Shown here piece after piece: positions 1,868 through 20,824 of a stretch of DNA of 64,000 nucleotides (within the stretch, counting starts at the first letter, position 1; the number at the start of each line of letters is the position of its first letter). The notes beneath the pieces are model-generated. The model made no database searches. It had not been told where the DNA came from and saw only the letters and a program-made list of their open reading frames with translations. Where the stretch lies: contig NZ_CP035806.1 of NCBI RefSeq assembly GCF_004208635.1, forward strand, positions 1,364,001 through 1,428,000. Direction: 5' to 3'. The DNA is from Leucobacter triazinivorans (lineage in GTDB: Bacteria; Actinomycetota; Actinomycetes; Actinomycetales; Microbacteriaceae). The translations under genes were made by a program, and so were the position numbers.

Positions 1868-1879
1868 GCTCGCAGTCCC

Positions 1880-3303: not shown

Positions 3304-3352
3304 GACGTCCTCGATTCGGTGGCGTAGGGGTCGGTGTGGAACCAGGCCTTCG
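3300..3352 (-). pseudogene. Orphaned 3' end of acr3
   Basis: Joining base 4635 to base 3352 and reading leftward (removing the IS and one target repeat) continues the acr3 frame with KAWFHTDPYATESRTS and a TGA at 3302-3300 that overlaps the ATG of the ArsR-ArsC gene. These 16 codons are therefore the original C-terminus of the arsenite pump, cut off by the IS insertion. The fragment has no start of its own. Confidence 0.85.
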
Positions 3353-3378
3353 GGGTCTGATGTCGGTTATGTTGACTC
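3353..3378 (+). repeat. IS3 left terminal inverted repeat
   Basis: Starts GGGTCTGATGTCGGTT and continues with GTTGACTC after two mismatched bases; mirrors 4606-4631. Confidence 0.85.
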
Positions 3379-3388
3379 GGGTTTCTCT

Positions 3389-4270: not shown

Positions 4271-4563
4271 TATTTTGGGGGCGTGATATGAATCTGCGAC
4301 AAATACGCTGCTGCCCGCCTAAGCACTTCGTTCTCCTGCTCGAGGAGCCTATTGCGGCGTATCAACTCACGAATCTGCGCATCCTCCGCCGCGGTCACGT
4401 CTTTCGTCACGGGTAGGCCAGCATCACGCCGTTCAGCATCAGCCACCCATTTCGACAGCGCCGACTTTGAGACTCCAAGATCTCGTCCGACTTCTCGTTG
4501 TGTCGCACCCTGCCGCACTAACGCGACCGCGTCTTTTTTGAACTCCTCCGAGTATTTCGCCAT
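4270..4563 (-). CDS. IS3 transposase OrfA (HTH and leucine zipper)
   Basis: 97 residues from MAKYSEEFKKDAV. An HTH_Tnp_1 domain (VRQGATQREVGRDLGVSKSA) is followed by a coiled coil with leucine spacing (RNRLLEQENEVLRRAAAYL). It ends ITPPK then TAG. The last codons contain the heptamer C-CCA-AAA in the correct phase for -1 ribosomal slippage, which would join OrfA to OrfB. The longer frame from 4605 was not used because the family start is MAKYS or similar. Confidence 0.9.
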   Translation of the reverse strand: MAKYSEEFKKDAVALVRQGATQREVGRDLGVSKSALSKWVADAERRDAGLPVTKDVTAAEDAQIRELIRRNRLLEQENEVLRRAAAYLSQIHITPPK

Positions 4564-4605
4564 GGTTCTATCCTCCCAGCCAGCACGTTCAGAACTGGCG
4601 GACAA

Positions 4606-4631
4606 GAGTCAACCAAACCGACATCAGACCC
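4606..4631 (-). repeat. IS3 right terminal inverted repeat
   Basis: Reverse complement of the left end with two mismatches. It supplies the premature TGA (4626-4624) that now ends acr3. Confidence 0.85.
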
Positions 4632-5670: not shown

Positions 5671-5993
5671 GCGAGCAGCTCCTCGATCTTCGCGGCGTAG
5701 ACGGGCTTCGGGTGCGCGCCGATCAGCACGTCCACGCGCTCCCCGTTCCGGTAGAAGCCGAGGGTCGGGATCGAGGTCACCCCGGCCGCGGTCACGGTCT
5801 CGGGGTTCTGGTCGGCGTCGACCTTCACGATCCTCACCCGGCCCGCGTACTCGCCGGCGAGCTGGTCCAGGATCGGGGCGATCGCCCTGCACGGGCCGCA
5901 CCAGGTCGCCCAAATGTCGACCACGACAGGCAGCTCGGACTCGAGCACCTCCGCCCGGAAAGTAGCGTCGGTGACAGGGATGACGGTGCTCAT
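5667..5993 (-). CDS. trxA: Thioredoxin in arsenic operon
   Basis: 108 residues, full length. The active site [13 protein letters not shown] lies at about 28-40, and the cis-proline is in [12 protein letters not shown]. It reduces protein disulfides and here most likely recycles the ArsC domains encoded downstream. ATGA overlaps on both sides link it to trxB and acr3. Confidence 0.95.
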
Positions 5994-6964
5994 GCGGAGA
6001 CCTCCAAAGCAAGCTCGGAAACGGTGGCGGGTGCGAGGTTCGACAGGTAGTGCTGGGCGTCCTGCGCGGCCGCGCAGCCGGTGCCCGCGGCGGTGATCGC
6101 CTGCCGGTACGTGTGATCGACGAGATCCCCGGCCGCGAACACCCCGGCCAGGTTCGTCCGCGTCGACGGGTGCGCGACCCGCACGTACCCGTCCGCGTCG
6201 GTGTCGACCTGCCCGGTCACGAGCTCGGAGCGCGGGTCGTGCCCGATCGCGACGAACACCCCCGTCGCGTCGAGCGTGCGCTCGGCCCCGGTGACGGTGT
6301 CGCGCAGCGTGAGCCCGGTGACCTGCTCGTCGCCGAGGATCGCGGCGACCTCGCTGTTCCAGGCGACCTCGATCTTCGGGTCGTCGAGCACGCGCTGCGC
6401 CATGATCCTCGACGCGCGGAACTCGTCCCGGCGGTGCACCACGGTCACCTTCGATGCGAACCGGGTGAGGAACAGGGCCTCCTCCATCGCGGAGTCCCCG
6501 CCGCCGACCACGACGATCTCCTGCTCCCGGAAGAAGAACCCGTCGCAGGTCGCGCACCACGACACACCGTGCCCGGACAGGCGCTCCTCCTCGGGAAGGC
6601 CGAGCTTGCGGTACGCGGAACCCATCGTCAGGATCACCGCCCGCGCCCGATACGTCGCCCCGGCACCGGTCTCGATGGTCTTCACGTCGCCGTCGAGTTC
6701 GAGGCGGACCGCGTCGTCGTAGACGATCTCGGCGCCGAACCGCTCGGCCTGTGCCCGCATCGACTCCATCAGCTCCGGGCCCTGCACGCCGTCGACGAAG
6801 CCCGGGAAGTTCTCCACCTCGGTCGTCGTCATCAGCGCACCGCCCGCGGTCACCGAGCCCGCGATCACGACCGGCGCGAGGCCCGCACGGGCGGCGTAGA
6901 CCGCCGCGGTGTACCCCGCAGGACCGGACCCGACGATGAGTAGTTCGACCTCTTTAATAGACAT
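5990..6964 (-). CDS. trxB: Thioredoxin reductase in arsenic operon
   Basis: 324 residues from MSIKEVELL. The FAD motif [17 protein letters not shown], the redox pair CATCDGFFF, the NADPH motif [14 protein letters not shown] and the C-terminal FAD contact AAGDLVD are all present. It transfers electrons from NADPH to TrxA. First gene of the leftward operon trxB-trxA-acr3-(IS)-arsR/C-arsC. An ATG six codons earlier (6982) is in frame, but 6964 fits the family N-terminus and lies just after a possible -10 element, suggesting leaderless translation. Confidence 0.93.
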
Positions 6965-6984
6965 GCATCTATATTGACGCATGT
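6957..6984 (-). promoter_or_regulatory. Candidate ars operon promoter/operator
   Basis: AT-rich patch in GC-rich surroundings at the trxB start. It contains an inverted repeat ACATGC-N12-GCATGT (6961-6984) and an overlapping near-palindrome ATAGACATGCATCTAT (6957-6972). Leftward it reads TATAGAT a few bases before the trxB ATG, usable as a -10. The ArsR-ArsC fusion would be the natural ligand. No clear -35 was found. Confidence 0.5.
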
Positions 6985-7053
6985 CGAAGCAAGCGGCAAG
7001 TCTGCGCAGCGCATCTGGGCGGGTGTTTGCCGAAGATTCATCTCCCGCGGCGC

Positions 7054-8808
7054 CTACGCACTGTCGGCCATGATGTTCTGTGGTCCCGTGCTGGTGTGGG
7101 AGTAGCCAAGTGCGGTCTCGACGCTGATGCCGAAGAGGTCACAGATGCGCCTGACGTCGCCGCCGGTCTGCTCGACTTCGTAGAGAATCCGGTCGGTGCG
7201 GAGTGCTTGCGCGGTCACGCCGGCTTTCTTCCAGGGGAAGTTCCGGCTGGGCGGTGAGAGACGGGGTGCGGTCTGGGTGGTGACGAGCATGTAGGGGTTC
7301 TTCGTCTCGGGCCAGCGTTTGGCTCGGTGATCGAGCCAGGCGGCCAGGCGGACAAGAACGGGCTTGGCGAGCGGGATGAAGCGGCCATCGGGCATCCGCA
7401 GACGTCCGTCGATGATGTCGGTGAGCTTGATGTGCTGCACTTGCGAAGTCATCAGAGCGTGGAAGGCGACGAGGGAGACGGCCAGCGCGATCGCGGGGTC
7501 GGGATTGGTGAGCGCGTCGCGGATCGCGGTGGGTTCCATCGGCAGCGGGAGGTTGCGTCTGGGGCCGCGCAGCGGAATCGCTTTCGTCGGGACGGTGAAG
7601 ACCAGCTTGCGACCGTGCAGGATCGTGAACAGGCTGCGGAAGCCGAGCATCATGGCGTGACGGCGCGAGGGGTCGTCAGGAAGGGCGGCGAGGATGTCTT
7701 CGGTGCTGATCCCGGCGAGGCTGGTGCGGCCTTCTTCGACCCAGCGAGTGATCGCGGGGAGGATGCCGTACATCTGGCCCTTGACGGTCATCGTGTCGCG
7801 GGGCTGACGGCGCGGCGGAGTCTTGGAACCGTCGACCATGATGTCTCGCCAGAGCTCGAGCTGGGATCGCATCGGCTCGGGCAGTGCGTGGGTCTTGCGT
7901 TCGAAGAGCTTGGTGAACGAGGGCACCCGGTCGTCAGTGAGGAGCCCGGCGTCTTCGAGGACTTCGATGGTGGAGCGGATGTTGCTGCCGTCGTCGTAGC
8001 GGCGCATCGAGAGGATGTCGGAGGCGCGGAAGCGCAGATTCGCGCCGGGGAACACGAGTTGCAGGACTTTCAGGGTGCGCCTGACCTGGTTGGTCTGGCG
8101 CTTGCTCCATGCGTACTCTCGGGCTCGGGGGTAGAGGAAGTGGTCGGTGCGGCTGGTGATGTCGCGCAGCCTGATCTCGTTGGAGCGCTGCCGGAGACGT
8201 TCGGGGTCGGGGTCGATATGGAACAGCACCGGTTGGTGGCTGGCCGGTTCCGGCGGCGGGGTGCTGATGACCTTGAGCGCTTCGCGGATGCTCATCGCCA
8301 TCGGCAGGTGGAGTTCCGCGGGCTGACGGGAGTCGTTCACCGAGGCGAGGAAGAGCTGCTGGCCGTACTTGCGTGCCGTGTCGAGGTCGAGCGGTTCGCC
8401 GAGTCTCTGGTGGTAGCGGGCGGTTTCCAGGCAGAGCCGGCAGTAGCCCTGTTCACCGATAGTGACCTCGCGGTGGCAGGAGATGCACTCACCTTGCGGG
8501 TAGTGGGTGAACCACCAGCGGCACTTCCAGCACCGCCAGTTGTGCCTGCGGTAGACGCCCCAGGCGAGGCAGTCGCGGCAGGAGCCGATGAAGCCGGGGC
8601 TGCCGGGGTGGCAGTGAGCGCAGAGGCCTTGGCTGTAATACTCGGCCGATCCGCACTTGCTACAGGCCGGCGGTGTGAACGGGCCGCCGGGGATGCAGTC
8701 GTAGCAGAAGTCGATTCGGGGTGTGAGCCACGCGGCCGGCTTGACCCCGCACGCGGTGCAGGGCAGCGGCGGACTCAGGGGTCCGTTCGGGCCGCGTGCC
8801 GGGCTCAT
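7054..8808 (-). CDS. Zinc-ribbon protein with degenerate tyrosine-recombinase-like C-terminus
   Basis: 584 residues. The first 150 hold repeated CxxC pairs (CTACG, CYDC, CSKCG, CAHC, CRDC, CWKC, CISC, CRLC), which look like consecutive zinc ribbons. The last 170 (from [16 protein letters not shown]) resemble a phage-integrase catalytic fold, ending in ALGYSHT, but the usual Arg and His-x-x-Arg residues are not apparent. It is the third gene of a trio, its ATG overlapping the stop of the XRE gene. A role as accessory DNA-binding subunit in transposition is inferred. I do not recognise a named family. Confidence 0.6.
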
Positions 8809-9134
8809 AGCGGCGGGGCGGGCCGATCGTTCTTCGGGCCGAACCGGGGCGTGACGATGCTCGTGTTCCCGTTAGCTTCTTCCCGTTCGCGGGCGCCGGG
8901 CTTGCGGGCGCGGACCTTCTCGGGTTCGGGTACGAGGAGATCGGTCGGCTCGCAGCCGAGGACATGGCAGATGACGTCGAGGTCGTCCAGCCGGATCGTG
9001 GTTGGGGTGCCCGTCCACAGCCCCGACATCTTGCCCTGGCTGATCTCTAGCCCGGCGTCGGCGAGCATCCGCCGTAGCTCCGTCGACTTCCAGATGCCGC
9101 GCTCGGCGGCCTGGACTCGCAAGTTCCATTTCAT
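8805..9134 (-). CDS. XRE-family HTH protein of recombinase trio
   Basis: 109 residues. A Cro/C1-type helix-turn-helix spans about 15-70 (LRRMLADAGLEISQGKMSGL; DDLDVICHVLGCEPTDLL), with a basic, disordered tail. The start at 9134 is fixed by the ATGA overlap with the recombinase stop. Overlaps on both sides mean the trio is translated as a unit. Possible roles are autoregulation of the element or directing the recombinase; neither is shown. Confidence 0.8.
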   Translation of the reverse strand: MKWNLRVQAAERGIWKSTELRRMLADAGLEISQGKMSGLWTGTPTTIRLDDLDVICHVLGCEPTDLLVPEPEKVRARKPGAREREEANGNTSIVTPRFGPKNDRPAPPL

Positions 9135-10219
9135 CGCGCGGTCATCCCTTCGAATCGGTCTTCCAGCCGTTGGTTCGCTTGCATCCACGAGTTCTCTACG
9201 TGCTCGCCCGGGACGTGGATGTACTGCGTCGTGGTCGAGAGCCACTGATGGCCCAGCAGCTCTTGCAGCGCCTTCAGATCCATACCCGCCAGATACAGAG
9301 AAGACGCGCAGTAGTGCCGGAGCACATGCGGCGTCATTCGCCCGTCGGCCCAGGCAGGCAGGAACCGCTCAGTGGCTCGGGCCAGGCCTCGTCGGAGCAC
9401 GTCATCGCTGGCCCGCCAGGAACGGCCGAGTTCGTGATCGAACCGTTCCGACGGGATCATCGGGGCATCCGGGTTGTCCCAATCGGGTCCGAACCGGTGT
9501 CGCACATCGCCGAGCCACCAGTCGATGAGCTTGTCCGCCCCGTTGATCGCGGGCACCAGGCGCTGCTTCGACCCGCGTCCGCGCGAGCCTTTGCCGAACC
9601 GGACATGCAGCTTGCCCAGCGCCCCGAGATCGGGCCGCCAATCACGGAGGTCGAGCTTCGTGCCCTCGGTGATGCGCACCCCGACCCTGCGCCAGAGCGA
9701 CGCAGCGAAGTAGTTCCGGGCAGCGGGCAGGTAGCGTCGCTCGTCTTGAAGTGAGGCCGCCCAGCCGCCGAACAGCCGCTCAATCTCCGCGTCCGAGGGC
9801 GGCACCCTGACCTTGCCGAGCGACGACCCGGACTGCCGGTTGTACTCGTCGACGGGCTGCTCGATCACCCACTCGGTGAGCGCATGGATGTCGCCTTGAT
9901 AGCGGGCGATAGCGAAGTCGTAGAACTGCGCGATCGCGCCCGCCTTGCCGGCTCTGGTCGTGACGGCCAGCCCTGCTCGACGTAGCCCGGCCAGGAAAGC
10001 GTCCGCGTCAGAAGGCTTGGCCTGCCAGACCGGGGCGTCGAGATGGTGACGGAACTCAAAGACGACCGCCCTGGACTGCGCGATGTACCCGTCACTGAGT
10101 CCAGCGGCAGCCATCGCGAGAGCGTGCTGATCGATGATCTCCTGCTCGAAGTCCGCAGCATCTTCCTCGGACCGCCAACCCCTGGCAGTTCCGATGCTCC
10201 GCACCGCGGCGAGCTTCAT
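9131..10219 (-). CDS. Tyrosine recombinase of recombinase trio
   Basis: 362 residues. An N-terminal SAM-like core-binding domain covers about 30-115. The catalytic domain has RRVGVRITEG (first Arg), HVLRHYCASSLY (His-x-x-Arg), LGHQWLSTTTQYIHV (His/Trp and the Tyr nucleophile). The active site looks complete. It probably moves the 7,054-10,219 segment or a larger unit. It is distinct in sequence and position from the island integrase at 19,220. Confidence 0.88.
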   Translation of the reverse strand: MKLAAVRSIGTARGWRSEEDAADFEQEIIDQHALAMAAAGLSDGYIAQSRAVVFEFRHHLDAPVWQAKPSDADAFLAGLRRAGLAVTTRAGKAGAIAQFYDFAIARYQGDIHALTEWVIEQPVDEYNRQSGSSLGKVRVPPSDAEIERLFGGWAASLQDERRYLPAARNYFAASLWRRVGVRITEGTKLDLRDWRPDLGALGKLHVRFGKGSRGRGSKQRLVPAINGADKLIDWWLGDVRHRFGPDWDNPDAPMIPSERFDHELGRSWRASDDVLRRGLARATERFLPAWADGRMTPHVLRHYCASSLYLAGMDLKALQELLGHQWLSTTTQYIHVPGEHVENSWMQANQRLEDRFEGMTAR

Positions 10220-11180: not shown

Positions 11181-11225
11181 CCGACACTTCTCGCCCGAGG
11201 CACCGGACCGGATGCAATGTCGGGC

Positions 11226-11273
11226 GCGCACCTATTCCTCGACTAATTCGTCACGACCGAGGGAGCAGAACCG
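11226..11273 (+). promoter_or_regulatory. Possible degenerate copy of island leader element
   Basis: GCGCACCT at 11226 followed by CGAC...GTC about 14 bases on, then GAGGGAG before the dprA-like ATG. Layout resembles the GTGCACCTG leaders at 12296, 15498 and 17926, but the match is weak. Confidence 0.3.
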
Positions 11274-12287
11274 ATGGGCACGATCAACGAGTTGGCTGCG
11301 GATGAGCGCACGGCGAGGATCATCCTCGCCATTGCCTCCGAGCCAGGAGACGCCGTCACGGGGCGGATGATCCGCACCGTCGGCGCCACCGAAACTGTCG
11401 CGCGAGCCATCGGAGCGGAGGTTCCGGTGGGGCCGGATGGTGATACTTGGCAGCGGCGTCTCGCACCACGTATCGACGCTGCACAGACTGAGCGGGTGAT
11501 CGCGGATGCTGAGCGTCACGGGATGCGGGTGCTGATCCCTGGCGATGCGCACTGGCCGTCCGGGATCGACGCGCTCGGAGATCGTGCACCGTTCGCACTG
11601 TGGGCGAGAGGCGACACCGAACTGCTGACGGAACCCGTCTGGGAACGGCTCACGATCACTGGGGCGCGAGCCTCGACCGGGTACGGGGAGCACGTCACGG
11701 CGGAGCTGGTGCAGTCCGCGGTGGACGAGGGCCATCGGGTGTTCTCCGGTGGCGCGTACGGGATCGACGGGGCCGCGCACCGTGCCGCACTCGCGTCCGG
11801 CGGCCCGACGGTCGCGGTGCTGGCTGGCGGGCTCGACCGGCTCTACCCGGCCGGGCACACCGATCTGCTCACTCGCGTCAGCAAGCAGGGGCTGTTGTTG
11901 TCGGAGTTGCCGCCGGGGGCGGCGCCGACGAAGTGGCGGTTTCTGCAACGCGGCCGCCTCCTCGCCGCCCTTTCCGGCACCGTGATCGTCGCGGAGGCGG
12001 GATACCGTTCGGGCACTCTGCATACCGCCGCCCGGGCGGTCGAGATCGGCCGCCCGGTGGGTGCGGTGCCGGGGCCGGTGACGAGTGCGGCATCGGCGGG
12101 GTGTCACCGGCTCCTGCGCGATGGTCTCGCCACGGTGATTACCGGTTACGACGACATTCGCGAACTGCTGTCCACGGTTCGTGACGGGGCGCATCGTCGG
12201 GTGCGTGAGCGGGCGGGGCTCGAGAACGATCCCCTCGACACCGACCCGCCCGGTGCCCGGCGGAACGGGCGCGGTATGGGGTTGTGA
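11274..12287 (+). CDS. DprA/Smf-like DNA-processing protein
   Basis: 337 residues. The Rossmann-like DprA core is clear: GARASTGYGEH, SGGAYGIDGAAHRAAL, VLAGGLDRLYPAGH, TKWRFLQRGRLLAALSG, VVEAGYRSGTLHTA-like VAEAGYRSGTLHTAARA, and VPGPVTSAASAGCHRLL. DprA binds single-stranded DNA and loads RecA during natural transformation. As an island-borne second copy it may protect incoming element DNA, or belong to a defence function; both are inference. RBS GAGGGAG precedes the ATG. Confidence 0.87.
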   Translation: MGTINELAADERTARIILAIASEPGDAVTGRMIRTVGATETVARAIGAEVPVGPDGDTWQRRLAPRIDAAQTERVIADAERHGMRVLIPGDAHWPSGIDALGDRAPFALWARGDTELLTEPVWERLTITGARASTGYGEHVTAELVQSAVDEGHRVFSGGAYGIDGAAHRAALASGGPTVAVLAGGLDRLYPAGHTDLLTRVSKQGLLLSELPPGAAPTKWRFLQRGRLLAALSGTVIVAEAGYRSGTLHTAARAVEIGRPVGAVPGPVTSAASAGCHRLLRDGLATVITGYDDIRELLSTVRDGAHRRVRERAGLENDPLDTDPPGARRNGRGMGL

Positions 12288-12295
12288 GGGCAGTG

Positions 12296-12359
12296 GTGCA
12301 CCTGGTGTGAAGGCGACCGGATTCCCGGGTCGCTGTTCGCAAATGTCAGGAGGCCTCTC
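12296..12359 (+). promoter_or_regulatory. Leader element with GTGCACCTG motif before surface-protein gene
   Basis: GTGCACCTG at 12296, then a CGACC...GGTCG stem (12314-12318 with 12328-12332), then the RBS AGGAGG at 12348. The same motif order recurs at 15498 and 17926. Confidence 0.5.
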
Positions 12360-15300
12360 GTGTCAGGATCACTCGCCCATATCTCGCAGCCACCTGCTGC
12401 TCAACCGCGAACGAGGGTGCGTCGATGGTTGTCCGTCCTGTTGGCGCTGTTCCTTCTCGCTGGTTCGTTCGCGCTGAACACTCCGGCGGCTCAGGCGGGC
12501 AGTCTCGGTGTCGGCTACGACATCGGGATGGGGTTCCTCGGCGCGTACAACACGGATGTGGACGGCCGGCAAGCGTATTGCGCGGACCTCGACGCCAACT
12601 CTCCGTTCTCACAGACCTACGGCCCCGAAACCGTCACGTCGTTGGATTCGCTGTCGCGGCAGCAGCTCGCAGAACTGAACTACGTCCTGGACAGGTGGGG
12701 GCAGTCGGGTGATCCGAACATCACCGCGGCCGTCGCCCTGCATGTGTGGTCGGTCACGAGCGCTGGCACCTACAACTCGCATGGCATGTCCGGTGACGAC
12801 TACTACGTCGCCCGGGCGCCTGCGTCGGAACGGGCGACAATTCTCGCGAACCTCGCCACGATGCGGCAGGAAGCCGCGAGCTACGCGGTGACCGACCCGT
12901 CGTTGACGTTGAGCCTGGACATGGCGGACCAGTACGCCGGCACGCTCACCGTCGCCACCCACCCCGCAGGCCTCACAGGCACCGCGACGCTGTCGGATGC
13001 GGTGTTTGCCGATGGGTCGTCGTCTCGGACGATTGGCGCGGGTGTGCATCCGATCATGGGCACCCCCGCGGACGGGGTCCCGTCGTACCGGATCGGTGCG
13101 TCGATGAGCATCGCTGCCGCCGGTTACGGGGCAGCACTCGATCTGTATGTGACACCGGGCGCGCAGCGTCTGATCGCCGCGGTCGCAGGTTCCTCCACCG
13201 GGCTGTCGGCGTCGGCGGAGTCGCCGGTAATCGAGCTGGATTTCCAGCCGGAGATCACCACCCAGGTCGCCTCCCGCTACGTCGCTGAGGGTGACGCGTT
13301 CGTTGACGGGCTCACGGTGTCGGTGTCGAAGGGCACATGGATTCACCTGGACGGAGCCCCGGTCGAGGTGACCGCGACCGGCACCCTGTACGGGCCGTTC
13401 GATGAGCAGCCCACAGAAGCCGACACCCCACCCGCCGGCGCACCTATCGCGGGCACGGAGACCGTGACGCTCACCGGTGCCGGCTCGTACACCTCGCCCG
13501 GCACGATCATCGCGCCGGAGTCAGGGTTCTACACCTGGGTGTGGGCGATCGATAAGGACGCCCACGGAGATCATGCGAAGTACCTCACCGATTCCTTCAC
13601 CGACCGCTACGGGCAAGTGACGGAGACGTCGGTGGTGCCATTCCAGCCGGTCGCGGTGTCGGAGGCGGATCAGCGCCTCGCCGTCCCCGGCGACGCCCTC
13701 ACGGACACCATCACCGTGTCCAGCTCGAACGGGGCCTGGCTGAAGAAGGACGGCGCACCGATTCCGGTGGTCTTCGAGGGCACCGCCTACCAAGTCCCCG
13801 GCACCCTCCCTCCCACGCAGAACCGGGTGATTAATGTGGCGGCGGTGCCGCTCGGCACGGTCACCGTCACAGCTGATGGGCCTGGCGTGTATACGTCGCC
13901 GTCGGTGGTGGCGCCGTCGGGTGGGTTCGTGACCTGGGTGTGGGAGGTGCGGAAGTCGTCGCAGCCGGAATGGGTGCGCGACTACCTCGCAAACGATTGG
14001 CAGGACGACTACGGCATCAACGTGGAGACGACCTCGGTCCGGTGGCCGATCACGGTGACGTCGCTGATGCGGGAGTACAACGTGCACCCCGGCGGACGCG
14101 CATTCGATGTCGTGACCGTGTCCGGGTTCCCCGCAAACCACGGTGACTTCACCGGTGACGGGTACTGGGGTGCGGATGTCGATGAGCTCCGCCACACCGT
14201 CTACGGCCCCTTCACCACCGACACGGAACTCACTGACGATCTCGACCTCACCACCGCACCCGTGCTGGCGGAGCTGATGACGCCGGCTCGGAATGGGGTC
14301 TACAAGCTCGGGTACACGGATGAGGACCAGATCGTGCCGACCGAGCCCGGCTTCTACGTCCTCGTGACGACGTTCACTGGTGATGATCGGGTGCAGCCGT
14401 ACCAGTCGTCCCCGGCGGATGTCCTGGAACGCTTCTACGTCCCACCCACCGGCACCGAGGTACCCGTGTCGGTGATCACCCAGGCAACCCCGGAAGCGCT
14501 CGTCGGTGAACCCTTCTCGGATACCGCACTCGTGCAGGGCACGAAGATTCCCGACGGCGCGTACCTGGTGTTCCGCGCGTACGGGCCGCACCCGGCAGAC
14601 GCCGACCCGGTGTGCGAGGTGCCGTTCTTCGAGAGCGACGAGATCCCTGTCGCCCAGGCAGGTGTCTATCGTTCCGGCACCACCAGCGTCGATGCGGCGG
14701 GGAACGTGTACTGGATCGAAACGCTCTACGACAGCGATGGCGGGATCATCGCTGAGGGTGAGTGCGGGGCGCCGGGTGAGACGACGGTCGTCAAAGAGCA
14801 GCCCGAAGAGCTGATCGTGAAGACGAACGCGGTGCCGACCGTCACGCTGGGTGATCCGGCGCATGATGTCGCGACCGTCACCGGCACTGTCCCCGACGGC
14901 GCGCAACTCTGGTTCGAGGCGTACCGGCAGGATGGCGAAACCGCCACCTGTACCCCGGAGGAACTGGTGTTCACCTCGACAGTGATCGAGTTGGACGGAC
15001 CGGGCGAGTATCGCTCCGACGAGGTGATCTTCGACCGGACTGGCGTCTACTACTGGGTGGAGACCGTCACCGACGCCGAGGGCACGAGCCTGCACCGCGG
15101 CGTCTGCGGCGCACCGGACGAAACCACCACCGTCACCGACTCACCAGACGAGCCCGACAAGCCCGGGACACCGGGTGAGCTCGCACAGACCGGCGGTGGT
15201 GACTGGTGGCCGCTCGGCCTCGCAGGCGGCCTGATCGCAGCGGCGACGGGTGGGGTGCTGCTGTTCGGGCGTCGCCTCGCGATCGCCCGCGAACGCAACG

Positions 15301-15371
15301 GCCATGTCCGTGAAGAGGACATGGGGTTCGAGGAGTTCAAGGCCCAGTTCGAGGGAGCAAAGGAGGACTAA
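12360..15371 (+). CDS. Cell-wall anchored repeat surface protein (LAQTG)
   Basis: 1,003 residues from GTG after a strong AGGAGG. A signal peptide ends near NTPAAQA (residue 40). The first domain (45-150, with AYCADLDAN and VALHVWSVTS) resembles thioester-type adhesin domains, but the usual Gln partner is not evident. About five beta-rich repeats of 100-130 residues follow, each with YTSP- or YRS-like and FYTWVW- or VYYWVET-like strands. The C-terminus has LAQTG near residue 941, a hydrophobic helix and basic residues: a sorting signal of the LAxTG (class E sortase) kind. Probably exposed on the surface, possibly promoting cell contact for transfer (inference). Confidence 0.87.
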   Translation: MSGSLAHISQPPAAQPRTRVRRWLSVLLALFLLAGSFALNTPAAQAGSLGVGYDIGMGFLGAYNTDVDGRQAYCADLDANSPFSQTYGPETVTSLDSLSRQQLAELNYVLDRWGQSGDPNITAAVALHVWSVTSAGTYNSHGMSGDDYYVARAPASERATILANLATMRQEAASYAVTDPSLTLSLDMADQYAGTLTVATHPAGLTGTATLSDAVFADGSSSRTIGAGVHPIMGTPADGVPSYRIGASMSIAAAGYGAALDLYVTPGAQRLIAAVAGSSTGLSASAESPVIELDFQPEITTQVASRYVAEGDAFVDGLTVSVSKGTWIHLDGAPVEVTATGTLYGPFDEQPTEADTPPAGAPIAGTETVTLTGAGSYTSPGTIIAPESGFYTWVWAIDKDAHGDHAKYLTDSFTDRYGQVTETSVVPFQPVAVSEADQRLAVPGDALTDTITVSSSNGAWLKKDGAPIPVVFEGTAYQVPGTLPPTQNRVINVAAVPLGTVTVTADGPGVYTSPSVVAPSGGFVTWVWEVRKSSQPEWVRDYLANDWQDDYGINVETTSVRWPITVTSLMREYNVHPGGRAFDVVTVSGFPANHGDFTGDGYWGADVDELRHTVYGPFTTDTELTDDLDLTTAPVLAELMTPARNGVYKLGYTDEDQIVPTEPGFYVLVTTFTGDDRVQPYQSSPADVLERFYVPPTGTEVPVSVITQATPEALVGEPFSDTALVQGTKIPDGAYLVFRAYGPHPADADPVCEVPFFESDEIPVAQAGVYRSGTTSVDAAGNVYWIETLYDSDGGIIAEGECGAPGETTVVKEQPEELIVKTNAVPTVTLGDPAHDVATVTGTVPDGAQLWFEAYRQDGETATCTPEELVFTSTVIELDGPGEYRSDEVIFDRTGVYYWVETVTDAEGTSLHRGVCGAPDETTTVTDSPDEPDKPGTPGELAQTGGGDWWPLGLAGGLIAAATGGVLLFGRRLAIARERNGHVREEDMGFEEFKAQFEGAKED

Positions 15372-15416
15372 CGAAGCTGCTGATCCGCTGGCACCCCCAA
15401 CACTGCGGGTCAGCAC

Positions 15417-15453
15417 GGGAGGGCACGAACCACCCCCAGGTTCGTGCCCTCCC
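15417..15453 (+). terminator. Strong hairpin after surface-protein gene
   Basis: Perfect 15-bp stem (15417-15431 with 15439-15453) with a 7-nt loop, 46 bp after the stop. It separates the surface protein gene from the coupling-protein operon. Confidence 0.85.
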
Positions 15454-15497
15454 ACCTTTCCGCGCCAAAGCGTCTCGCGGCGCTTGGGGCGGTGCGG

Positions 15498-15544
15498 GTG
15501 CACCTGCATGGCGACACCCCTGCACCCGTTTGGAAGGACCCTCT
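15498..15544 (+). promoter_or_regulatory. Leader element with GTGCACCTG motif before transfer operon
   Basis: GTGCACCTG at 15498 and GGCGAC at 15510, then GGAAGGA as RBS for the GTG at 15545. Lies directly after the terminator, so a promoter is expected here. Confidence 0.5.
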
Positions 15545-16129
15545 GTGACGCCGAAGCCGCGCGACCGCCGCACCCACCCCGACCACCAGCCCCCACGCAT
15601 GGCAAAGTCGCCGAAGTCTGAATCGGGCGGGCCAGTGGTCGTGCCGGTCGTGGAGTTCACCATCGACGGCGACGCGTCGATGACGGTCACGGTGGATGGG
15701 GTGCCGTATCTGCCGGAGCCGTTCGCGCCCGGCTGGCGGCGCGAGTCGTTCCCGACGATCCTCGACACCCTCACCGCCCGCTACCGGACGCCGCTGCGCG
15801 TGCAGGTGCGGGAAGCAGACGGGTCGACGTTCACCGACATCATCACCCCACCCCGCGAACGCCCCGCCCCGAAGGCCTGGGAAACACCACCGTCAGCTCC
15901 GACTCCGCCGATTAAGTCGGTGCCACCGGTGCTGCATCAGGTCATGGGCTCGGGATTCGTGCCGGGCGAGGATGTCGCGGTCGCGATCATCCACGCCCAC
16001 AGCGACGCCAGCGGTGACGGTATTGCTCGCGCCGTCCTCACCACCGAACAGGCCGCAGCCGCGGTGACAGGTGAAGTGATCCTCCTCGGTCGCGTCTCCG
16101 GCACCCTCACCATCGGCAGAATCCAATGA
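15545..16129 (+). CDS. Hypothetical protein upstream of coupling protein
   Basis: 194 residues from GTG, placed after GGAAGGA (the in-frame TTG at 15530 would put the RBS inside the gene). The N-terminus is basic and proline-rich. Residues 40-95 form a small beta-rich region (VEFTIDGDASMTVTVDGVPYLPE), followed by a proline linker and a second beta-rich part with GSGFVPGEDVAVAIIHAH. No membrane helix. Its stop overlaps the coupling-protein ATG, so it probably acts in the same transfer function. Family not recognised. Confidence 0.7.
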   Translation: MTPKPRDRRTHPDHQPPRMAKSPKSESGGPVVVPVVEFTIDGDASMTVTVDGVPYLPEPFAPGWRRESFPTILDTLTARYRTPLRVQVREADGSTFTDIITPPRERPAPKAWETPPSAPTPPIKSVPPVLHQVMGSGFVPGEDVAVAIIHAHSDASGDGIARAVLTTEQAAAAVTGEVILLGRVSGTLTIGRIQ

Positions 16130-17901
16130 GCACCCCAAGACAGAGCGGGGCGCTCGGTGATGAGCTGGCGAACCTCGGCATCATCGCCCTCATCGCCGGA
16201 GCCTGCCTCGCCGTCATCCTCCGTATCGCCGGCAGCATCACCGCCTGGGCTACCGGGGTCACCCAACCGTCGGGCGGGATCGAAGCCGGCCTCGGCGTGC
16301 TCCTGCGCCCCGGTGATCCGGGTGCCGCGCTCGGCGCCGACGGTCTCAACGCCGTCGTCTACTGGGTCGTCGCCGGCGCCCTGATCACCGCGGTCGGGGC
16401 GGCGGGTTGGTGGGCGGGGCGGACGTTCCGGGAACAGGCACGGCGCACGAAGGTCGACCCATACCGGATCGCCGGGATCGCCACTCGCACTGACGTGGCC
16501 ACGGCTGCATCGGAGAAGTCACTGCTGCGTCGCGCCGGGCAGCTCCGCCCGTCGATCCAGAGCCCGGCGGTCGGAGATGTGGGCTATCTCCTGGGTGCGT
16601 CGCGGGGCGTGAACGTGTGGGCGAGTGTGGAGGACTCGATCCTGCTGATCGGGCCACCACGCTCGGGGAAGGGCCTGCATGTGGTGATCAACGCGATCCT
16701 CGACGCACCTGGCGCGGTCGTTACCACCTCCACCCGCCCCGACAACCTCACCGCCACCCTCAACGCCCGAAGCACCGACGACCGCCCTGTCGCGGTGTTC
16801 GACCCGCAACACCTCGCAGAAGGCGTCCCGGCAGGACTCCGATGGTCGCCGATCCGGGGGTGCGAGGACCCGTTGACCGCGATGATCCGCGCCACCGGAC
16901 TTGCCGCCGGCACCGGCCTCTCCGCCGGCGGCGTCGAAGGCGGCGACTTCTGGGAAGGGAAAACCCGCACCGCCCTCCAAGCCCTACTCCATGCCGCCGC
17001 GTTGGATCACCGTTCACCTGCCGAGTTGTTCCGGTGGACACTTGACCCGGCTGCGGCGTCGGATGCGGTCGCGATCCTCACCGCGAACCCGAACGCCGCA
17101 ACAGGGTGGGCGGACTCGTTGCAAGCCATGATCGACGCAGACCCGAGAACCCGCGACTCCATCTGGCAAGGCGTCTCGCTGTCCTTGGCGGCACTCGCTG
17201 ACCCGAGAGTGCTCGACGCGGTCAGCCCCGGCCCGGATGAACGGTTCAATCCCGAAGAGTTCCTCCGCAAGCGCGGCACCGTCTACCTCCTCGCAACGGG
17301 CACGGGGGCGAACAACAGTGCCGCGCTGGTGTCGGCGTTCGTGGAAGACCTCGTGGAAGCCGCCCGACGCCTCGCCGCCCGATCACCCGCCGCCCGCCTC
17401 GACCCACCCCTCTTGCTCGCTTTGGATGAGATCGGGAACCTTGCCCCGCTCCCGTCTTTGCCGACGTTGATGGCGGAAGGCGGCGGGACGGGGATCACGA
17501 CGATGCCGGTGTTGCAGTCTCTCGCCCAGGCGCGGGAGAAGTGGTCGGACAACGCGGCCGGCGCGATCTGGGACGCCAGCATTGTGAAGATCATCCTCGG
17601 CGGAGCCTCCAACTCCCGCGACCTTCAAGACCTGACGACGCTCGTCGGGGAGCGTGACGAGATCACCGACTCCACCACGGTGGGGGACCACGGGTCCCGC
17701 ACCGCGCAACGCTCCATCCGACGCGTGCCGATCATGCCACCCGACGTGATCCGCACCCTCCCATTCGGCACCGGCCTCATCCTCCTCCGCGCCGCACCAC
17801 CGATCATCGCGCGCCTACGTGAGTGGACTTCCCGACGAGACGCGGCCGATCTTCAGTCGCATCGTTCGGAGATTGAGCAGTTGCTGCAACAGCGCCCATG
17901 A
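16126..17901 (+). CDS. Type IV coupling protein (VirD4/TraG/TraD-like ATPase)
   Basis: 591 residues. Two N-terminal membrane helices (about 18-40 and 75-95) are followed by a cytoplasmic ATPase domain with Walker A IGPPRSGKG (about 183), Walker B LLLALDEIGNLAPLPSLP (about 430) and a TraG C-terminal region (LQDLTTLVGERDEI). It links the relaxosome to the secretion channel and pumps DNA during conjugation. This is the best evidence that the island is conjugative or mobilizable. No relaxase or VirB4 is in the window. Confidence 0.88.
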   Translation: MSTPRQSGALGDELANLGIIALIAGACLAVILRIAGSITAWATGVTQPSGGIEAGLGVLLRPGDPGAALGADGLNAVVYWVVAGALITAVGAAGWWAGRTFREQARRTKVDPYRIAGIATRTDVATAASEKSLLRRAGQLRPSIQSPAVGDVGYLLGASRGVNVWASVEDSILLIGPPRSGKGLHVVINAILDAPGAVVTTSTRPDNLTATLNARSTDDRPVAVFDPQHLAEGVPAGLRWSPIRGCEDPLTAMIRATGLAAGTGLSAGGVEGGDFWEGKTRTALQALLHAAALDHRSPAELFRWTLDPAAASDAVAILTANPNAATGWADSLQAMIDADPRTRDSIWQGVSLSLAALADPRVLDAVSPGPDERFNPEEFLRKRGTVYLLATGTGANNSAALVSAFVEDLVEAARRLAARSPAARLDPPLLLALDEIGNLAPLPSLPTLMAEGGGTGITTMPVLQSLAQAREKWSDNAAGAIWDASIVKIILGGASNSRDLQDLTTLVGERDEITDSTTVGDHGSRTAQRSIRRVPIMPPDVIRTLPFGTGLILLRAAPPIIARLREWTSRRDAADLQSHRSEIEQLLQQRP

Positions 17902-17925
17902 CCCGGTCAACTGCGGGAGCTGGGT

Positions 17926-17985
17926 GTGCACCTGTCAGGTGAGCGGCGACGAGGGGTCGTTGCACGATCTGACAGGAGTATTCGG
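17926..17985 (+). promoter_or_regulatory. Leader element with GTGCACCTG motif before ssb-like gene
   Basis: GTGCACCTG at 17926, GGCGAC at 17945, and a CGAC...GTCG stem (17947-17950 with 17956-17959), then ACAGGAG as RBS. Third clear copy in the island. Confidence 0.5.
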
Positions 17986-18444
17986 ATGGCCATTCAGACG
18001 CAGCAGTCCATCTCGGGGTTCATCGCCACGCAGCCGCAGCTGACCGTGAGCGAGCACGGGATCTCACGGTTTCACGCTCGTATCGGGATTGAGCATTCTC
18101 GGCAGGAACCGGATGGGTCGTTCACGCAACTCGAGCCGACGTTCCATGGCCTCGCGATCTTCCGCAAGACGGCAGAGGAAGCAGCGGCGCGGTTCAGGAA
18201 AGGTGACCGGTTCGTCGCTTCCGGTCGCGTTCATGAGTACAACTACGACAAGGACGGAGAGACAGTAGCCGCGGAGGAGTTCATTGCCTCGCGTATCGGC
18301 CACGACCTTGCCCGCACTCGTTACGAGGTCGATCGGTCGCCCCGTCGTGAAGCCATCGCGCACGAACATGACGCGCTCGGTGACTCCGCGGTCGCGTCTG
18401 CCACCTCGCCGCAGCCCAAGGTGGCATCGCGTGCGAGTCTCTGA
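17986..18444 (+). CDS. Single-stranded DNA-binding-like protein (OB fold)
   Basis: 152 residues; the ATG follows ACAGGAG. MAIQTQQSISGFIATQPQLT, the central strand pair TFHGLAIFRKTAEEAAARF and KGDRFVASGRVHEYNY match the SSB OB-fold layout. The C-terminus lacks the acidic DDDIPF tip of host SSB. Element-borne SSBs protect transferred single strands; this fits its place after the coupling protein. Confidence 0.8.
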   Translation: MAIQTQQSISGFIATQPQLTVSEHGISRFHARIGIEHSRQEPDGSFTQLEPTFHGLAIFRKTAEEAAARFRKGDRFVASGRVHEYNYDKDGETVAAEEFIASRIGHDLARTRYEVDRSPRREAIAHEHDALGDSAVASATSPQPKVASRASL

Positions 18445-18457: not shown

Positions 18458-19024
18458 ATGGATGAGAACACGGTTGAGGCGGAAGAGTTCAACGAAGACG
18501 ACTTCGAGACAGAGTTCGAGGGGCCGCTGTTGGTCGAGCCGCCGCACCCCATCAACTGGAACCTGCTGGGCCCGGAAGACCTTGAAGCGGAATGGCTAGA
18601 GCTCAACCGCTGGGTGCACTGGCTGCGCCGAACCTATGGACTCCCAGCTTCCGTCGTTCCGCCGTTCTGGCATCACCACCCCGAACTGCTGTGGGAGCTC
18701 TCCGCCCTCCACCTGCACTGGCTCTGCTCATACGACTCAGAAAAGACCGGGTCAGCACCGTTCGCATGGCATCGAGACTTCGCCGACGCACGCCTACGGC
18801 TTCGCGACTGGGTCACAGGAATCGGCACACGCCTCGACCGCGACCGCCCCACCAGGCAGACCGCCTGGCCGGGCGAACCGCCAGCTCCACCCGTCGATGA
18901 CACCGTGATCGAGGACCGGGAGACCGAATTCGTCGAGTTCGTCTATGCCGAAGTCGCAAAGCGACGGGAAGAGGAAGACGCCTTCTACCAGTCACTCGAT
19001 CCCCGAACGGGGGAAGTCTCATGA
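18458..19024 (+). CDS. DUF4913-family protein
   Basis: 188 residues. Acidic N-terminus, then a tryptophan-rich core (WLELNRWVHWLRRTYG, PFWHHHPELLWELSALHLHW, RLRLRDWVTGI) typical of DUF4913, a family common on actinobacterial plasmids and ICEs with no known function. A GTG at 18431 is a possible alternative start. Its stop overlaps the next ATG. Confidence 0.75.
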   Translation: MDENTVEAEEFNEDDFETEFEGPLLVEPPHPINWNLLGPEDLEAEWLELNRWVHWLRRTYGLPASVVPPFWHHHPELLWELSALHLHWLCSYDSEKTGSAPFAWHRDFADARLRLRDWVTGIGTRLDRDRPTRQTAWPGEPPAPPVDDTVIEDRETEFVEFVYAEVAKRREEEDAFYQSLDPRTGEVS

Positions 19025-19236
19025 CCGACACCTCCGTCGCAGGAATCACCTCGCCGCTGCTCCACAGCCGCGATGTCGCGACCTATCTGAAGGTGTCAGA
19101 GTCCACCCTGTCCCGATGGCGGTCGGCGGGAACGGGGCCACCGTTCATCCGAATGAGTGGCATCGCCAGGTACCGACTCGAAGCTGTCGATGCTTGGCTG
19201 GCAGAGTTGGAACACGACCATGCCACGCGGGGGTGA
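19021..19236 (+). CDS. Excisionase-like HTH protein
   Basis: 71 residues with a MerR/HTH_17 winged helix: LLHSRDVATYLKVSESTLSRW...IRYR-like IARYRLEAVDAWLAE. Such proteins sit beside integrases and control the direction of recombination. It overlaps both the DUF4913 stop and the integrase start. Confidence 0.85.
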   Translation: MTDTSVAGITSPLLHSRDVATYLKVSESTLSRWRSAGTGPPFIRMSGIARYRLEAVDAWLAELEHDHATRG

Positions 19237-20449
19237 GCCGTTCCCCAAGGCTGAGCCAAAGCCAGTGCCACCGGTCGGGGTGAAGATCTCTACCGACATG
19301 GAGCGCCGTACCTACGGCATCCGCGCCCGAGCCCGCTGGACCGACCCGATCACCAAACGACGAGTCATTCGCACCGAGATCGTCCCCGACGAAGCCGCAG
19401 CCCACAGCTTCTTCGACCAACTGCGGAACTCGTCCGTCAAAGGCATGGATACGGCAATGACGCTGACGGAGTTCGTCACCTCCATCGGGGAGCGGTGGGC
19501 GCGCGGGCTCGACCCGACATCGACGGGCGAAACCTACGGGTTCGGGTTGAAGCTACGGGTGCTGCCCGCGCTCGGGCACCTGCCCGTCACACAGATCACC
19601 GCCGGCATTATCGACCGCACCATCGACGGGTGGGAGCAACGCTACGGCGCCTCCACCATCAAGAACTCCATCGCACCACTCGTGCGGGTGCTCGACGAGG
19701 CAGTGCGTGACGGGCTGATCACGATCAACCCCGCGAAGAATCGCGCCAAGCGCAGCCTCAACCGGAACGCGTTCAGGAACCAGTCTGCCGAGCAAGCGTC
19801 ACCGCGGGCGCACGCGATCCCGGATATGAAGACGCTCAACAAGCTCGCGAAAGCCTGCGAGAAGGTCGGCCAGTCCTACAGCGACTTCGTCATGCTCGCT
19901 GCACTCCTCGCTGCGCGCTCCTCCGAAGTGTCGGGGCTGCAGGTCGGGGATGTCCGGTTCGACAAGAACCTCGTCGTGATCTCCCGGCAGGTATTCCCCG
20001 GCAAGGGCGGCCTCATCACCAAACCAACCAAGAGCCGGAAAGAACGGCGCGTGCCGATCCTCGAACCCCTCCGCCCAGTGCTCGAACGACTCACTGCGGG
20101 CAAGGAGCCCGAAGACTCGCTCCTCGTCGGCCCGAAGGGTGGATATCTCACGACCGCGACGGTGCGCGACGCCACGGACTGGGACGCGATCGTTGCGAAG
20201 CTCGGACTGCCCAACCTCACTCGTCATGGGCTCCGCCACACTGGAGCGACGTGGATGGCCGACGCGGGCGTGCCACTGCATGTGCTCCAAGAGATCCTCG
20301 GACACGCCTCGATGGAGACCACCAGAGGATACTTGCACCCCGACGACCGACATCTCGCTTCGGCTGCCGAGCAGGCCAACGCGTTCCTCTCACCCTCCGG
20401 GCAGAAGCGTCACAGCTCACGCACCAGCCCGTCAACGCGAGGGCTCTGA
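19220..20449 (+). CDS. int: Tyrosine integrase of the genomic island
   Basis: 409 residues from MPRGGEPFPK, overlapping the excisionase gene by 17 bp; an in-frame ATG at 19157 would overlap it further. An N-terminal arm-binding region and a core-binding domain (105-185) precede the catalytic domain with AARSSEVSGLQ (Arg), HGLRHTGATWMADAG (His-x-x-Arg), LGHASMETTRGYLHP (His, Tyr). The gene ends 210 bp from the 3' end of tRNA-Pro, the usual arrangement for an element integrated at a tRNA. Confidence 0.93.
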   Translation: MPRGGEPFPKAEPKPVPPVGVKISTDMERRTYGIRARARWTDPITKRRVIRTEIVPDEAAAHSFFDQLRNSSVKGMDTAMTLTEFVTSIGERWARGLDPTSTGETYGFGLKLRVLPALGHLPVTQITAGIIDRTIDGWEQRYGASTIKNSIAPLVRVLDEAVRDGLITINPAKNRAKRSLNRNAFRNQSAEQASPRAHAIPDMKTLNKLAKACEKVGQSYSDFVMLAALLAARSSEVSGLQVGDVRFDKNLVVISRQVFPGKGGLITKPTKSRKERRVPILEPLRPVLERLTAGKEPEDSLLVGPKGGYLTTATVRDATDWDAIVAKLGLPNLTRHGLRHTGATWMADAGVPLHVLQEILGHASMETTRGYLHPDDRHLASAAEQANAFLSPSGQKRHSSRTSPSTRGL

Positions 20450-20658: not shown

Positions 20659-20732
20659 TCGGGCTGACAGGATTTGAACCTGCGACCCCCTGACCCCCAG
20701 TCAGGTGCGCTACCAAGCTGCGCCACAGCCCG
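20659..20732 (-). tRNA. tRNA-Pro (anticodon GGG)
   Basis: 74-nt cloverleaf: acceptor CGGGCTG/CAGCCCG, D arm GCGCAGCTTGGTAGCGC, anticodon stem CCTGA/TCAGG with loop CTGGGGG (anticodon GGG), and T arm with GGTTCAAATCC. No encoded CCA. The 3' half faces the integrase gene and is the likely attachment site of the island. Confidence 0.95.
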
Positions 20733-20783
20733 TGGCATCATTTTTCAGTTGTTTCGGGCCGTCCGGGAAGGGTAAACCCCTTA

Positions 20784-20824
<41 letters not shown>

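What the first reader, a model, noticed from the sequence alone, without database searches (positions are those of the whole stretch)
11226..17985. Shared intergenic leader (GTGCACCTG, then GGCGAC hairpin) before three island genes
GTGCACCTG occurs at 12296, 15498 and 17926, each followed after 12-19 bases by GGCGAC (in two cases a CGAC...GTCG stem) and then the RBS 47-64 bases from the motif. A weaker version precedes the dprA-like gene at 11226. The arrangement links the surface-protein, coupling-protein and ssb genes and could be an island regulon operator or a structured RNA leader. No annotated family explains it.
Basis: seen in the sequence. Interest (0 to 1): 0.72.

Follow-up and report, generated by a model that had tools for sequence, protein, structure and literature searches.

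The report
Mobile element's promoter-in-hairpin gene switch
The repeated sequence in front of three genes belongs to a control signal shared by many genes of one family of bacterial mobile elements; it looks like a start site for making RNA, buried in an RNA hairpin that hides the ribosome-binding site of any longer message, and the elements carry a previously unrecognised protein shaped like the factor that would read it.

Summary
The repeats are real and not chance. GTGCACCTG lies before the surface-protein, orf2 and ssb genes, a weaker copy before dprA. In 42 loci of related integrative elements the core (mostly GCACCT) precedes Shine-Dalgarno(SD)-plus-start sites 124 times in sense and 18 in antisense; in 59 held-out loci, 191 against 38. 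Two signals are superimposed. (1) A fixed-spacing element: G at -12, GYACCT at 0 to +5, pyrimidine-purine at +12/+13; it is specific to this element clade and is kept in leaders with little hairpin. (2) An RNA hairpin pairing CCT and the bases after it with the SD; complementarity to the SD stops near +13. My best explanation is a promoter starting RNA at +13 inside the 5' arm of an SD-hiding hairpin, as at phage T4 late genes: read-through messages are silent, promoter messages translatable. The strongest match in the host genome precedes a 288-aa gene of unknown family whose predicted structure resembles sigma-70 factors; in 14 of 20 such leaders the SD begins exactly at +13. No transcript start was measured; promoter and sigma role are inferred.

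The parts
11216..11242 (+). Leader element before dprA: GCACCT at 11228-11233, C/G at 11240/11241 (putative transcript start G11241). The base at -12 (11216) is A, not G. Little pairing with the SD.
   Evidence: P(CCT pairs SD) 0.34, 0.28
11274..12287 (+). dprA-like gene (DNA_processg_A)
   Evidence: Pfam PF02481, E 4.4e-60
12286..12311 (+). Leader element before the surface-protein gene: G at -12 (12286), GCACCT 12298-12303. +12/+13 are A/A here, so the start, if it is one, could be 1-2 bases earlier.
12301..12353 (+). SD-hiding hairpin: CCTG 12301-12304 with CAGG 12347-12350, inner stem GCGACC 12313-12318 with GGTCGC 12328-12333; SD AGGAGG 12348-12353
   Evidence: P = 1.00 against 0.20 in shuffles, 0.58 against 0.07 with longer flanks
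12360..15371 (+). Large surface-protein-like gene, 1003 aa, no Pfam or NCBIfam family
15417..15453 (+). GGGAGGGCACGAAC...GTTCGTGCCCTCCC hairpin between the surface gene and the next leader; terminator-like (inferred)
   Evidence: the same stretch in L011
15488..15514 (+). Leader element before orf2: G at -12 (15488), GCACCT 15500-15505, C/G 15512/15513 (putative start G15513). No SD pairing.
   Evidence: P 0.00
15545..16129 (+). orf2, 194 aa, unknown; its end overlaps the coupling-protein start (ATGA)
16126..17901 (+). VirD4/TraG-type coupling protein
   Evidence: Pfam PF12696 E 1.6e-26, PF02534; NF045973 below its cut-off
17898..17942 (+). Mini-ORF ATG ACC CGG TCA ACT GCG GGA GCT GGG TGT GCA CCT GTC AGG TGA: overlaps the traG stop (ATGA) and ends inside the ssb leader's 5' arm; possible translational coupling
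17916..17942 (+). Leader element before ssb: G at -12 (17916), GCACCT 17928-17933, T/G 17940/17941 (putative start G17941)
17931..17976 (+). SD-hiding hairpin: CCTGTCAG 17931-17938 with CTGACAGG 17969-17976; inner stem GCGGCGAC 17943-17950 with GTCGTTGC 17956-17963; SD within AGGAGT 17974-17979
   Evidence: P = 1.00 against 0.37, z -4.3; 0.99 against 0.13; SD unpaired 0.21 in the long RNA, 0.61 if RNA starts at +13
17986..18444 (+). ssb-like gene
   Evidence: Pfam PF00436, E 2.7e-8
18458..20449 (+). 188-aa ORF (18458-19024), HTH_17 excisionase-like (19021-19236) and tyrosine integrase (19157-20449); no leader element seen before these

Best explanation
The repeated leader is a promoter embedded in the 5' arm of a Shine-Dalgarno (SD)-hiding RNA hairpin, used by many genes of one clade of actinobacterial integrative conjugative elements. 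RNA started further upstream (read-through from the host or from the gene before) contains the whole hairpin: CCT and the following bases pair with the SD, so the gene is not translated. When the element's own transcription factor recognises G(-12)...[CT]GYACCT, RNA starts at the purine at +13, the 5' arm is missing, the SD is free and the gene is translated. The likely factor is a 288-aa protein encoded about 14 kb left of this window (genome C1:1349896-1350762), whose predicted fold resembles sigma-70 factors and whose own gene carries the same leader, giving positive feedback. SHOWN by computation: the motif, its fixed spacing, the SD complementarity, its fall-off near +13, clade specificity, co-occurrence of the sigma-like gene. 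INFERRED: that the motif is a promoter, that RNA starts at +13, that the sigma-like protein reads it, and that transfer genes are thereby held off until activation.
For: Fixed spacing. In 80 leaders kept after removing near-duplicates (94 before) G at -12 is in 64, Y at +12 in 66, R at +13 in 72; G at -12 is 31% and 28% in controls. Held-out loci (59 of 80 fetched; 10 duplicates of the first set and 11 near-duplicates among themselves dropped): G 81% near starts against 31-35% elsewhere, YR 77% against 26-34%. Hairpin. P(CCT pairs SD) 0.67 against 0.33 with the interior shuffled, n = 77 (3 of 80 had no SD by my rule), p = 4e-11; 161 leaders of both sets, p = 1.7e-9. Boundary. The arm -4..+12 matches its own SD region better than others' (-13.0 against -10.8 kcal/mol, z -7.7, 0 of 5000 permutations); -30..-14 shows nothing (z -0.5); +13..+29 avoids it (z +3.1); n = 89 selected for G and YR out of 161. 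In 73 leaders with P > 0.5 the arm ends at median +13 and the inner stem starts at median +15. Separable from the hairpin: dprA and orf2 leaders (G at -12 in 6 of 7 each) pair little with the SD on average. Clade specificity: of the 30 best own-genome matches 15 are leaders, all in island regions and on the + strand; the other 15 lie inside long open frames; 20 loci of distant elements lack it. Sigma-like protein: it lies behind the best own-genome match; 49 of the 50 structure rows shown come from entries on sigma factors or RNA polymerase initiation complexes, and the top rows likewise for a first model; present in 27 of 34 genomes with the clade's coupling protein and 3 of 165 without; its leader has the motif in 20 of 27 loci, G in 19 and YR in 18 of the 20, and the SD starts exactly at +13 in 14 of the 20. 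The GTACCT variant goes with a divergent sigma-like group: 6 of 10 leaders against 4 of 70, p = 1.2e-4. Precedent: T4 genes e, soc, 49, I-TevI (passages of PMC3014915 and PMC2988022).
Confidence: 0.57

Rival explanations
1. RNA only: an SD-sequestering hairpin that couples translation of each gene to the gene before it (or answers to an RNA-binding factor), with no promoter in it.
For: Hairpin and SD complementarity are strong. In several elements the traG reading frame itself ends inside the 5' arm (GCA CCT xxx TGA; L049, L050, L052, L054, L056, L061; L011), and here ATGA- and GTGA-overlap mini-ORFs run into the ssb and surface leaders. In 47 of 73 leaders the arm reaches +13 or beyond, which a pure hairpin tolerates.
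Against: G at -12 lies outside the hairpin and is fixed in spacing across most gene families. dprA and orf2 leaders keep the motif with little SD pairing on average, and dprA here has a divergent neighbour, so no upstream ribosome. Complementarity falls off near +13 and is avoided beyond. 14 of 20 sigma-like leaders put the SD exactly at +13.
Confidence: 0.23
2. DNA operator: a binding site for an element-encoded repressor or activator (for example the ParB-like or the DUF2637-HTH protein), with the host's ordinary sigma factor making the RNA from elsewhere; the hairpin is a separate layer.
For: Fixed spacing over 26 bp and clade specificity fit any DNA-binding protein; the element encodes a ParB_N-like protein (just under Pfam's cut-off) and a membrane protein with an HTH.
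Against: The site is not an evident dyad, and it sits at a fixed place relative to the SD-pairing boundary. The pyrimidine-purine step and the SD-pairing boundary both fall at about +13. The best own-genome match precedes the sigma-like gene, not the ParB-like one.
Confidence: 0.15
3. Single-stranded DNA element (Frpo-type promoter or STAXI-like motif) working on the transferred strand.
For: Leaders precede ssb, dprA and, in the larger element, a methyltransferase-like gene: possible early-recipient functions; leaders lie on the strand of the transfer genes.
Against: The stems end in the SD and are short. Structural genes (pilin-like, coupling, surface protein) carry it too, and the complementarity is tied to the SD, a translation signal.
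Confidence: 0.04
4. Chance recurrence in GC-rich DNA.
For: 15 of the 30 best genome matches lie inside long open frames and look like chance.
Against: 124 against 18 and 191 against 38 sense/antisense near starts; distant elements of the same host family do not show it.
Confidence: 0.01

Closest known systems
Phage T4 late genes e, soc, 49 and I-TevI (late promoter inside the 5' strand of an RBS-sequestering hairpin; sigma factor gp55)
   Same: SD paired in the longer read-through RNA; a dedicated promoter in the 5' arm would give RNA without it; an element-encoded sigma factor; several genes under one signal.
   Different: A conjugative element, not a phage; GC-rich bipartite signal (G-N11-GYACCT), not TATAAATA; many leaders per element, including the regulator's own gene; nothing shown at the bench yet.
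Sigma-70 family factors (nearest folds: SigW, AlgU, SigI1, sigma-B, sigma-S)
   Same: Predicted fold of residues about 10-110 resembles region 2; the C-terminal helical domain aligns with the later part of sigma in many rows.
   Different: No detectable sequence similarity; 1703 homologues at E <= 0.001, none of the 120 listed named as a sigma factor; RNA polymerase binding untested.
Sigma-54 promoters (-24/-12)
   Same: If +13 is the start, GG and GC fall at about -25/-24 and -13/-12 with 10 bases between.
   Different: No sigma-54 gene in the host; the ACCT that follows is not part of that consensus (recalled).
STAXI motif (Weinberg 2010)
   Same: A repeated structured motif near ssb and other DNA-handling genes.
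   Different: STAXI is tandem pseudoknots; this is one SD-pairing hairpin per leader. Passage read only.
SetCD regulon of SXT/R391 ICEs
   Same: Element-wide activation of transfer genes by an element-encoded factor (title and start of abstract in search listing; that it activates is recalled).
   Different: An activator, not a sigma-like factor; no SD-hiding hairpin known to me (recalled).

Membership tests
Sigma-70 family (the element's 288-aa protein) | Region-2 fold | tested here: inconclusive
Sigma-70 family (the element's 288-aa protein) | Detectable sequence similarity to sigma domains | tested here: not met
   No Pfam sigma domain in any of 60 members, no NCBIfam or PHROG match worth naming, no PDB profile hit, no hhalign hit. 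So it is called sigma-like, not filed as a member.
Sigma-70 family (the element's 288-aa protein) | Binds RNA polymerase core and starts RNA at specific promoters | not testable with these tools
   needs biochemistry
T4-type promoter-in-hairpin gate | SD paired in the longer RNA | tested here: met
   predicted; weak for orf2 and dprA leaders
T4-type promoter-in-hairpin gate | Promoter within the 5' arm, start beyond it | tested here: inconclusive
   fixed element and +13 boundary, but the arm passes +13 in 47 of 73 folds and no start is mapped
T4-type promoter-in-hairpin gate | Short RNA translated, long RNA not | not testable with these tools
   -
Sigma-54 promoter | RpoN present in the host | tested here: not met
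   PF04552: 0 matches; 4 of 14 control genomes ring
Known RNA family (Rfam 15) | Gathering-score match in a leader | tested here: not met
   this window only:
Integrative conjugative element | Integrase, coupling protein and other transfer genes at a tRNA gene | tested here: met
   integrase and coupling protein in the window, next to tRNA-Pro; M23 peptidase and a block of transfer-type genes upstream, shared with the second island (the VirB names are inferred)
Integrative conjugative element | Excision and transfer | not testable with these tools
   -

The most novel reading that the evidence does not exclude
A widespread clade of actinobacterial conjugative elements carries its own highly divergent sigma factor, unrecognised by any family library searched here. 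It autoactivates and reads a GC-rich promoter (G-N11-GYACCT-N7-start) that is typically placed inside the 5' arm of an SD-hiding hairpin, so that the transfer genes are locked against read-through from the host and open together only when the element switches itself on.
Probability: 0.5. Interest if true: 0.9.

Novelty: new variant of a known kind. Interest (0 to 1): 0.82.

Why it matters
How conjugative elements of Actinobacteria stay silent and then switch on is poorly known (my own knowledge). If right, one element-encoded sigma-like factor and one signal explain it for this clade. The signal lets the regulon be read from sequence (at least 547 related loci), gives a family of 1703 mostly unnamed proteins a testable function, and shows the T4 late-gene trick used by a conjugative element. 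I found no report of either part in the searches (open-licence full text only).

Tried and rejected
Rfam on the window and leaders: nothing in the leaders. Sigma-54: geometry fits, but no RpoN. Element-encoded sigma-70 by Pfam region 2: six genes in the host; the only one near this window (C1:1386012, about 1.3 kb beyond the tRNA-Pro end of the element) is chromosomal. Region-4 hits in two islands turned out to be DUF2637 membrane proteins with an HTH. RNAalifold on a MAFFT alignment of 36 ssb leaders gave no consensus; I think this is because the CCT arm pairs with either AGG of the SD, so the register shifts; permutation tests were used instead. A gapless-arm permutation test (62 of 80 leaders) gave z 4.6 overall, driven by ssb, with little for the VirB2-like group and nothing for orf2, dprA or traG. 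'Tight' against 'not tight' upstream context is only a modest discriminator. k-mer search in distant elements found no clear substitute signal. Viral structure library: a few phage sigma factors in the list, no significant match. Plasmids: one record holds the sigma-like protein. In one search the minus-strand matches were read on the wrong strand; one search repeats them on the right one: 13 of the 15 non-leader matches have no SD-plus-start, two (L212, L219) pass the loose rule but lie inside long open frames.
Full report
OBSERVATION. GTGCACCTG lies at 12296, 15498 and 17926, followed by GGCGAC 16, 12 and 19 bases on, and by start codons at 12360, 15545 and 17986. A copy with the core GCACCT at 11228 precedes dprA (11274). 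Exact copies in the window number 5 against 0.57 expected. In the whole host genome GTGCACCTG-N0-20-GGCGAC occurs 8 times; 5 are leaders of mobile-element genes: three here, one before the surface gene of a paralogous island at 2.94 Mb, one before a small VirB2-like gene of a third island at 0.365 Mb; the other three lie in coding-like stretches.

SETTING. The stretch is the right end of an integrative element: DprA, a 1003-aa surface-like protein, orf2, a VirD4/TraG-type coupling protein, SSB, a 188-aa ORF, an excisionase-like HTH and a tyrosine integrase next to tRNA-Pro. The left part continues outside the window: ArdC-like antirestriction protein, Prim-Pol, DUF2637-HTH protein, ParB-like protein, M23 peptidase and transfer-type genes, shared with the second island. 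The genome has four such coupling proteins.

CONSERVATION. Coupling-protein homologues were found in 59 of 199 genomes of the family; 40 loci were fetched and oriented together with the window and L011. In all 37 loci whose ssb match began at residue 1, one of GCACCT, GTACCT, GCTCCT or GCACACCT lies 55-69 bases before the ssb start (loci with a later match start, at least L045 and L076, were set aside). A scan for [CT]GCACCT, CGTACCT or CGCTCCT gave 443 sense and 231 antisense matches in the 42 loci, and 124 against 18 at 40-75 bases from an SD-plus-start ORF of 60 aa or more. Behind these leaders are ssb (35), small VirB2-like proteins (15), orf2 (10), dprA (8), the surface protein (8), a 260-aa family (8), an ATPase-like group (5) and the coupling protein itself in five elements (5); the rest are pairs and singletons, many probably chance (gene names inferred by protein similarity). 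A second collection gave at least 547 related loci, by the titles of the 80 that the tool kept mainly Micrococcales and Propionibacteriales. After dropping 10 duplicates of the first set and 11 near-duplicates among the rest, 59 held-out loci gave 661/367 in total and 191/38 near starts.

TWO SUPERIMPOSED SIGNALS. (a) Fixed-spacing element. Anchored on the G of GCACCT, 80 non-redundant leaders show G at -12 in 64, Y at +12 in 66 and R at +13 in 72; G at -12 is 31% at other sense and 28% at antisense motif copies; it is weak in two families (4 of 8 for the 260-aa family, 1 of 5 for traG). The held-out set repeats it: 81% against 31-35%, and YR 77% against 26-34%. (b) RNA hairpin. With motif and SD held fixed and the interior shuffled, the chance that CCT pairs with the SD falls from 0.67 to 0.33 (77 leaders; 3 of 80 had no SD by my rule; p = 4e-11): ssb 0.81 to 0.35, surface 0.88 to 0.33, but orf2 only 0.39 to 0.30 and dprA 0.32 to 0.15. 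In 161 non-redundant leaders of both sets p = 1.7e-9. Examples of changed but still paired arms: CCTGTTC/GAACAGG (L058), CCTCCAA/TTGGAGG (L063), CCTGTCAG/CTGACAGG (window).

THE BOUNDARY NEAR +13. For the 89 of 161 leaders with both G and YR, the arm -4..+12 binds its own SD region better than those of other leaders (-13.0 against -10.8 kcal/mol, z -7.7, 0 of 5000 permutations); the stretch -30..-14 shows no effect (z -0.5) and +13..+29 avoids the SD (z +3.1). In the 73 leaders with P > 0.5 for which a structure could be read, the arm ends at median +13 and the inner stem starts at median +15; the arm ends before +13 in only 26 of the 73. The element survives where the hairpin is weak (dprA, orf2), and G(-12) lies outside the hairpin. 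So the element is not merely the hairpin's sequence.

CLADE SPECIFICITY. A sequence-only model of 59 leaders (R1) was run over the host genome. Of the 30 best matches, 15 sit before an SD and start: 12 found by script, 3 (L194, L197, L207) read by eye because the start is closer than the script allowed. All 15 are on the + strand in island regions (1.34-1.38, 2.93-2.95, 0.33-0.38 Mb; the one at 0.328 Mb, L209, lies 30 kb from the third island's sigma-like gene and beside a fifth sigma-like gene on the other strand, so it may belong to another element). The other 15 lie inside long open frames; 13 have no SD-plus-start behind them and two pass the loose rule (which corrects the strand used for minus-strand matches). 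Several leaders were not in the training set, among them those of a methyltransferase-like gene (1340913) and of the gene described next. Twenty loci of more distant elements (coupling protein 30-43% identical, some in genomes that also hold the clade) show no excess (6 against 6 and 9 against 6 near starts), and 1 of those 15 sense copies has both G and YR. The reader of the signal is therefore probably encoded by the element.

MECHANISM. Best explanation: an element-encoded sigma-like factor starts RNA at +13 from a promoter inside the 5' arm of an SD-hiding hairpin. Read-through RNA is translationally silent; dedicated RNA is not. The sigma-like gene shares the signal, so the switch would be self-reinforcing. 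T4 late genes e, soc, 49 and I-TevI work this way with sigma gp55 (passages read in PMC3014915 and PMC2988022). Not shown: any transcript start, any binding, any translation effect. Contrary points: GC-rich -10 region; arms that pass +13 in 47 of 73 folds; incomplete motif at dprA and at the surface gene of this window; only partial SD release in the folding model, and none for the surface and orf2 leaders here; 7 of 34 genomes without the sigma-like gene; negative sequence searches.

RIVALS. Pure translational coupling keeps some force: the traG frame ends inside the ssb arm in several elements, and mini-ORFs overlapping the upstream stop codon (ATGA at 17898, GTGA at 12284) run into the ssb and surface leaders here. 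It can coexist with the promoter, but alone it does not explain G(-12), YR, or the dprA leader, which has no upstream gene on its strand. A DNA operator for another element protein is possible; the ParB-like and DUF2637-HTH proteins are candidates.

LITERATURE. Searches (listings and starts of abstracts seen; passages read in five papers) showed no report of this motif or of a sigma factor carried by a conjugative element. The library is open-licence papers only.

ODDS.

Noticed in passing
window 13-7000: Cargo of the same island region: heavy-metal P-type ATPase (E1-E2_ATPase), an LMWPc (arsenate-reductase-like) gene region 1880-3130, an IS3-type transposase (rve, 3389-4270), SBF-family (arsenite-type) transporter 4624-6012 and a pyridine-nucleotide reductase 5990-6982 (arsenic and metal roles inferred).
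   Followed up: no
window 7054-10219 (-): Three-gene module: 584-aa protein with no Pfam family, an HTH_26 protein and a second tyrosine recombinase; possibly a separate recombinase-bearing element inside the island.
   Followed up: no
window 20683-20824: tRNA-Pro 3' part is repeated about 100 bases further on (CCCCCAGTCA[G/A]GTGCGCTACCAAGCTGCGCCACAGCCCGT): likely attachment-site remnant (seen).
   Followed up: no
window 12284-12310 and 17898-17942: Mini-ORFs whose start overlaps the stop of the gene before (GTGA, ATGA) and which end inside the leader hairpins; in other elements traG itself extends there.
   Followed up: partly
L009:8709-9395 (and the equivalent in L013/L091): DUF2637 membrane protein with a C-terminal HTH that passes Pfam's Sigma70_r4_2 cut-off: a membrane-bound DNA-binding protein of the element.
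   Followed up: partly
L145, L164, L170: The element appears in contigs labelled Trueperaceae, Acidobacteria and Planctomycetota; more likely binning contamination than transfer outside Actinobacteria.
   Followed up: no
L078-L082: In these elements the coupling-protein gene itself has the leader; in four of them (L078-L081) the SD AAGGTG pairs GTACCT or GCACCT directly.
   Followed up: partly
genome C1:324975-325781 (-) and C1:1090798-1091658 (+): Fourth and fifth sigma-like genes in the host genome; the first lies on the opposite strand next to leader L209.
   Followed up: no
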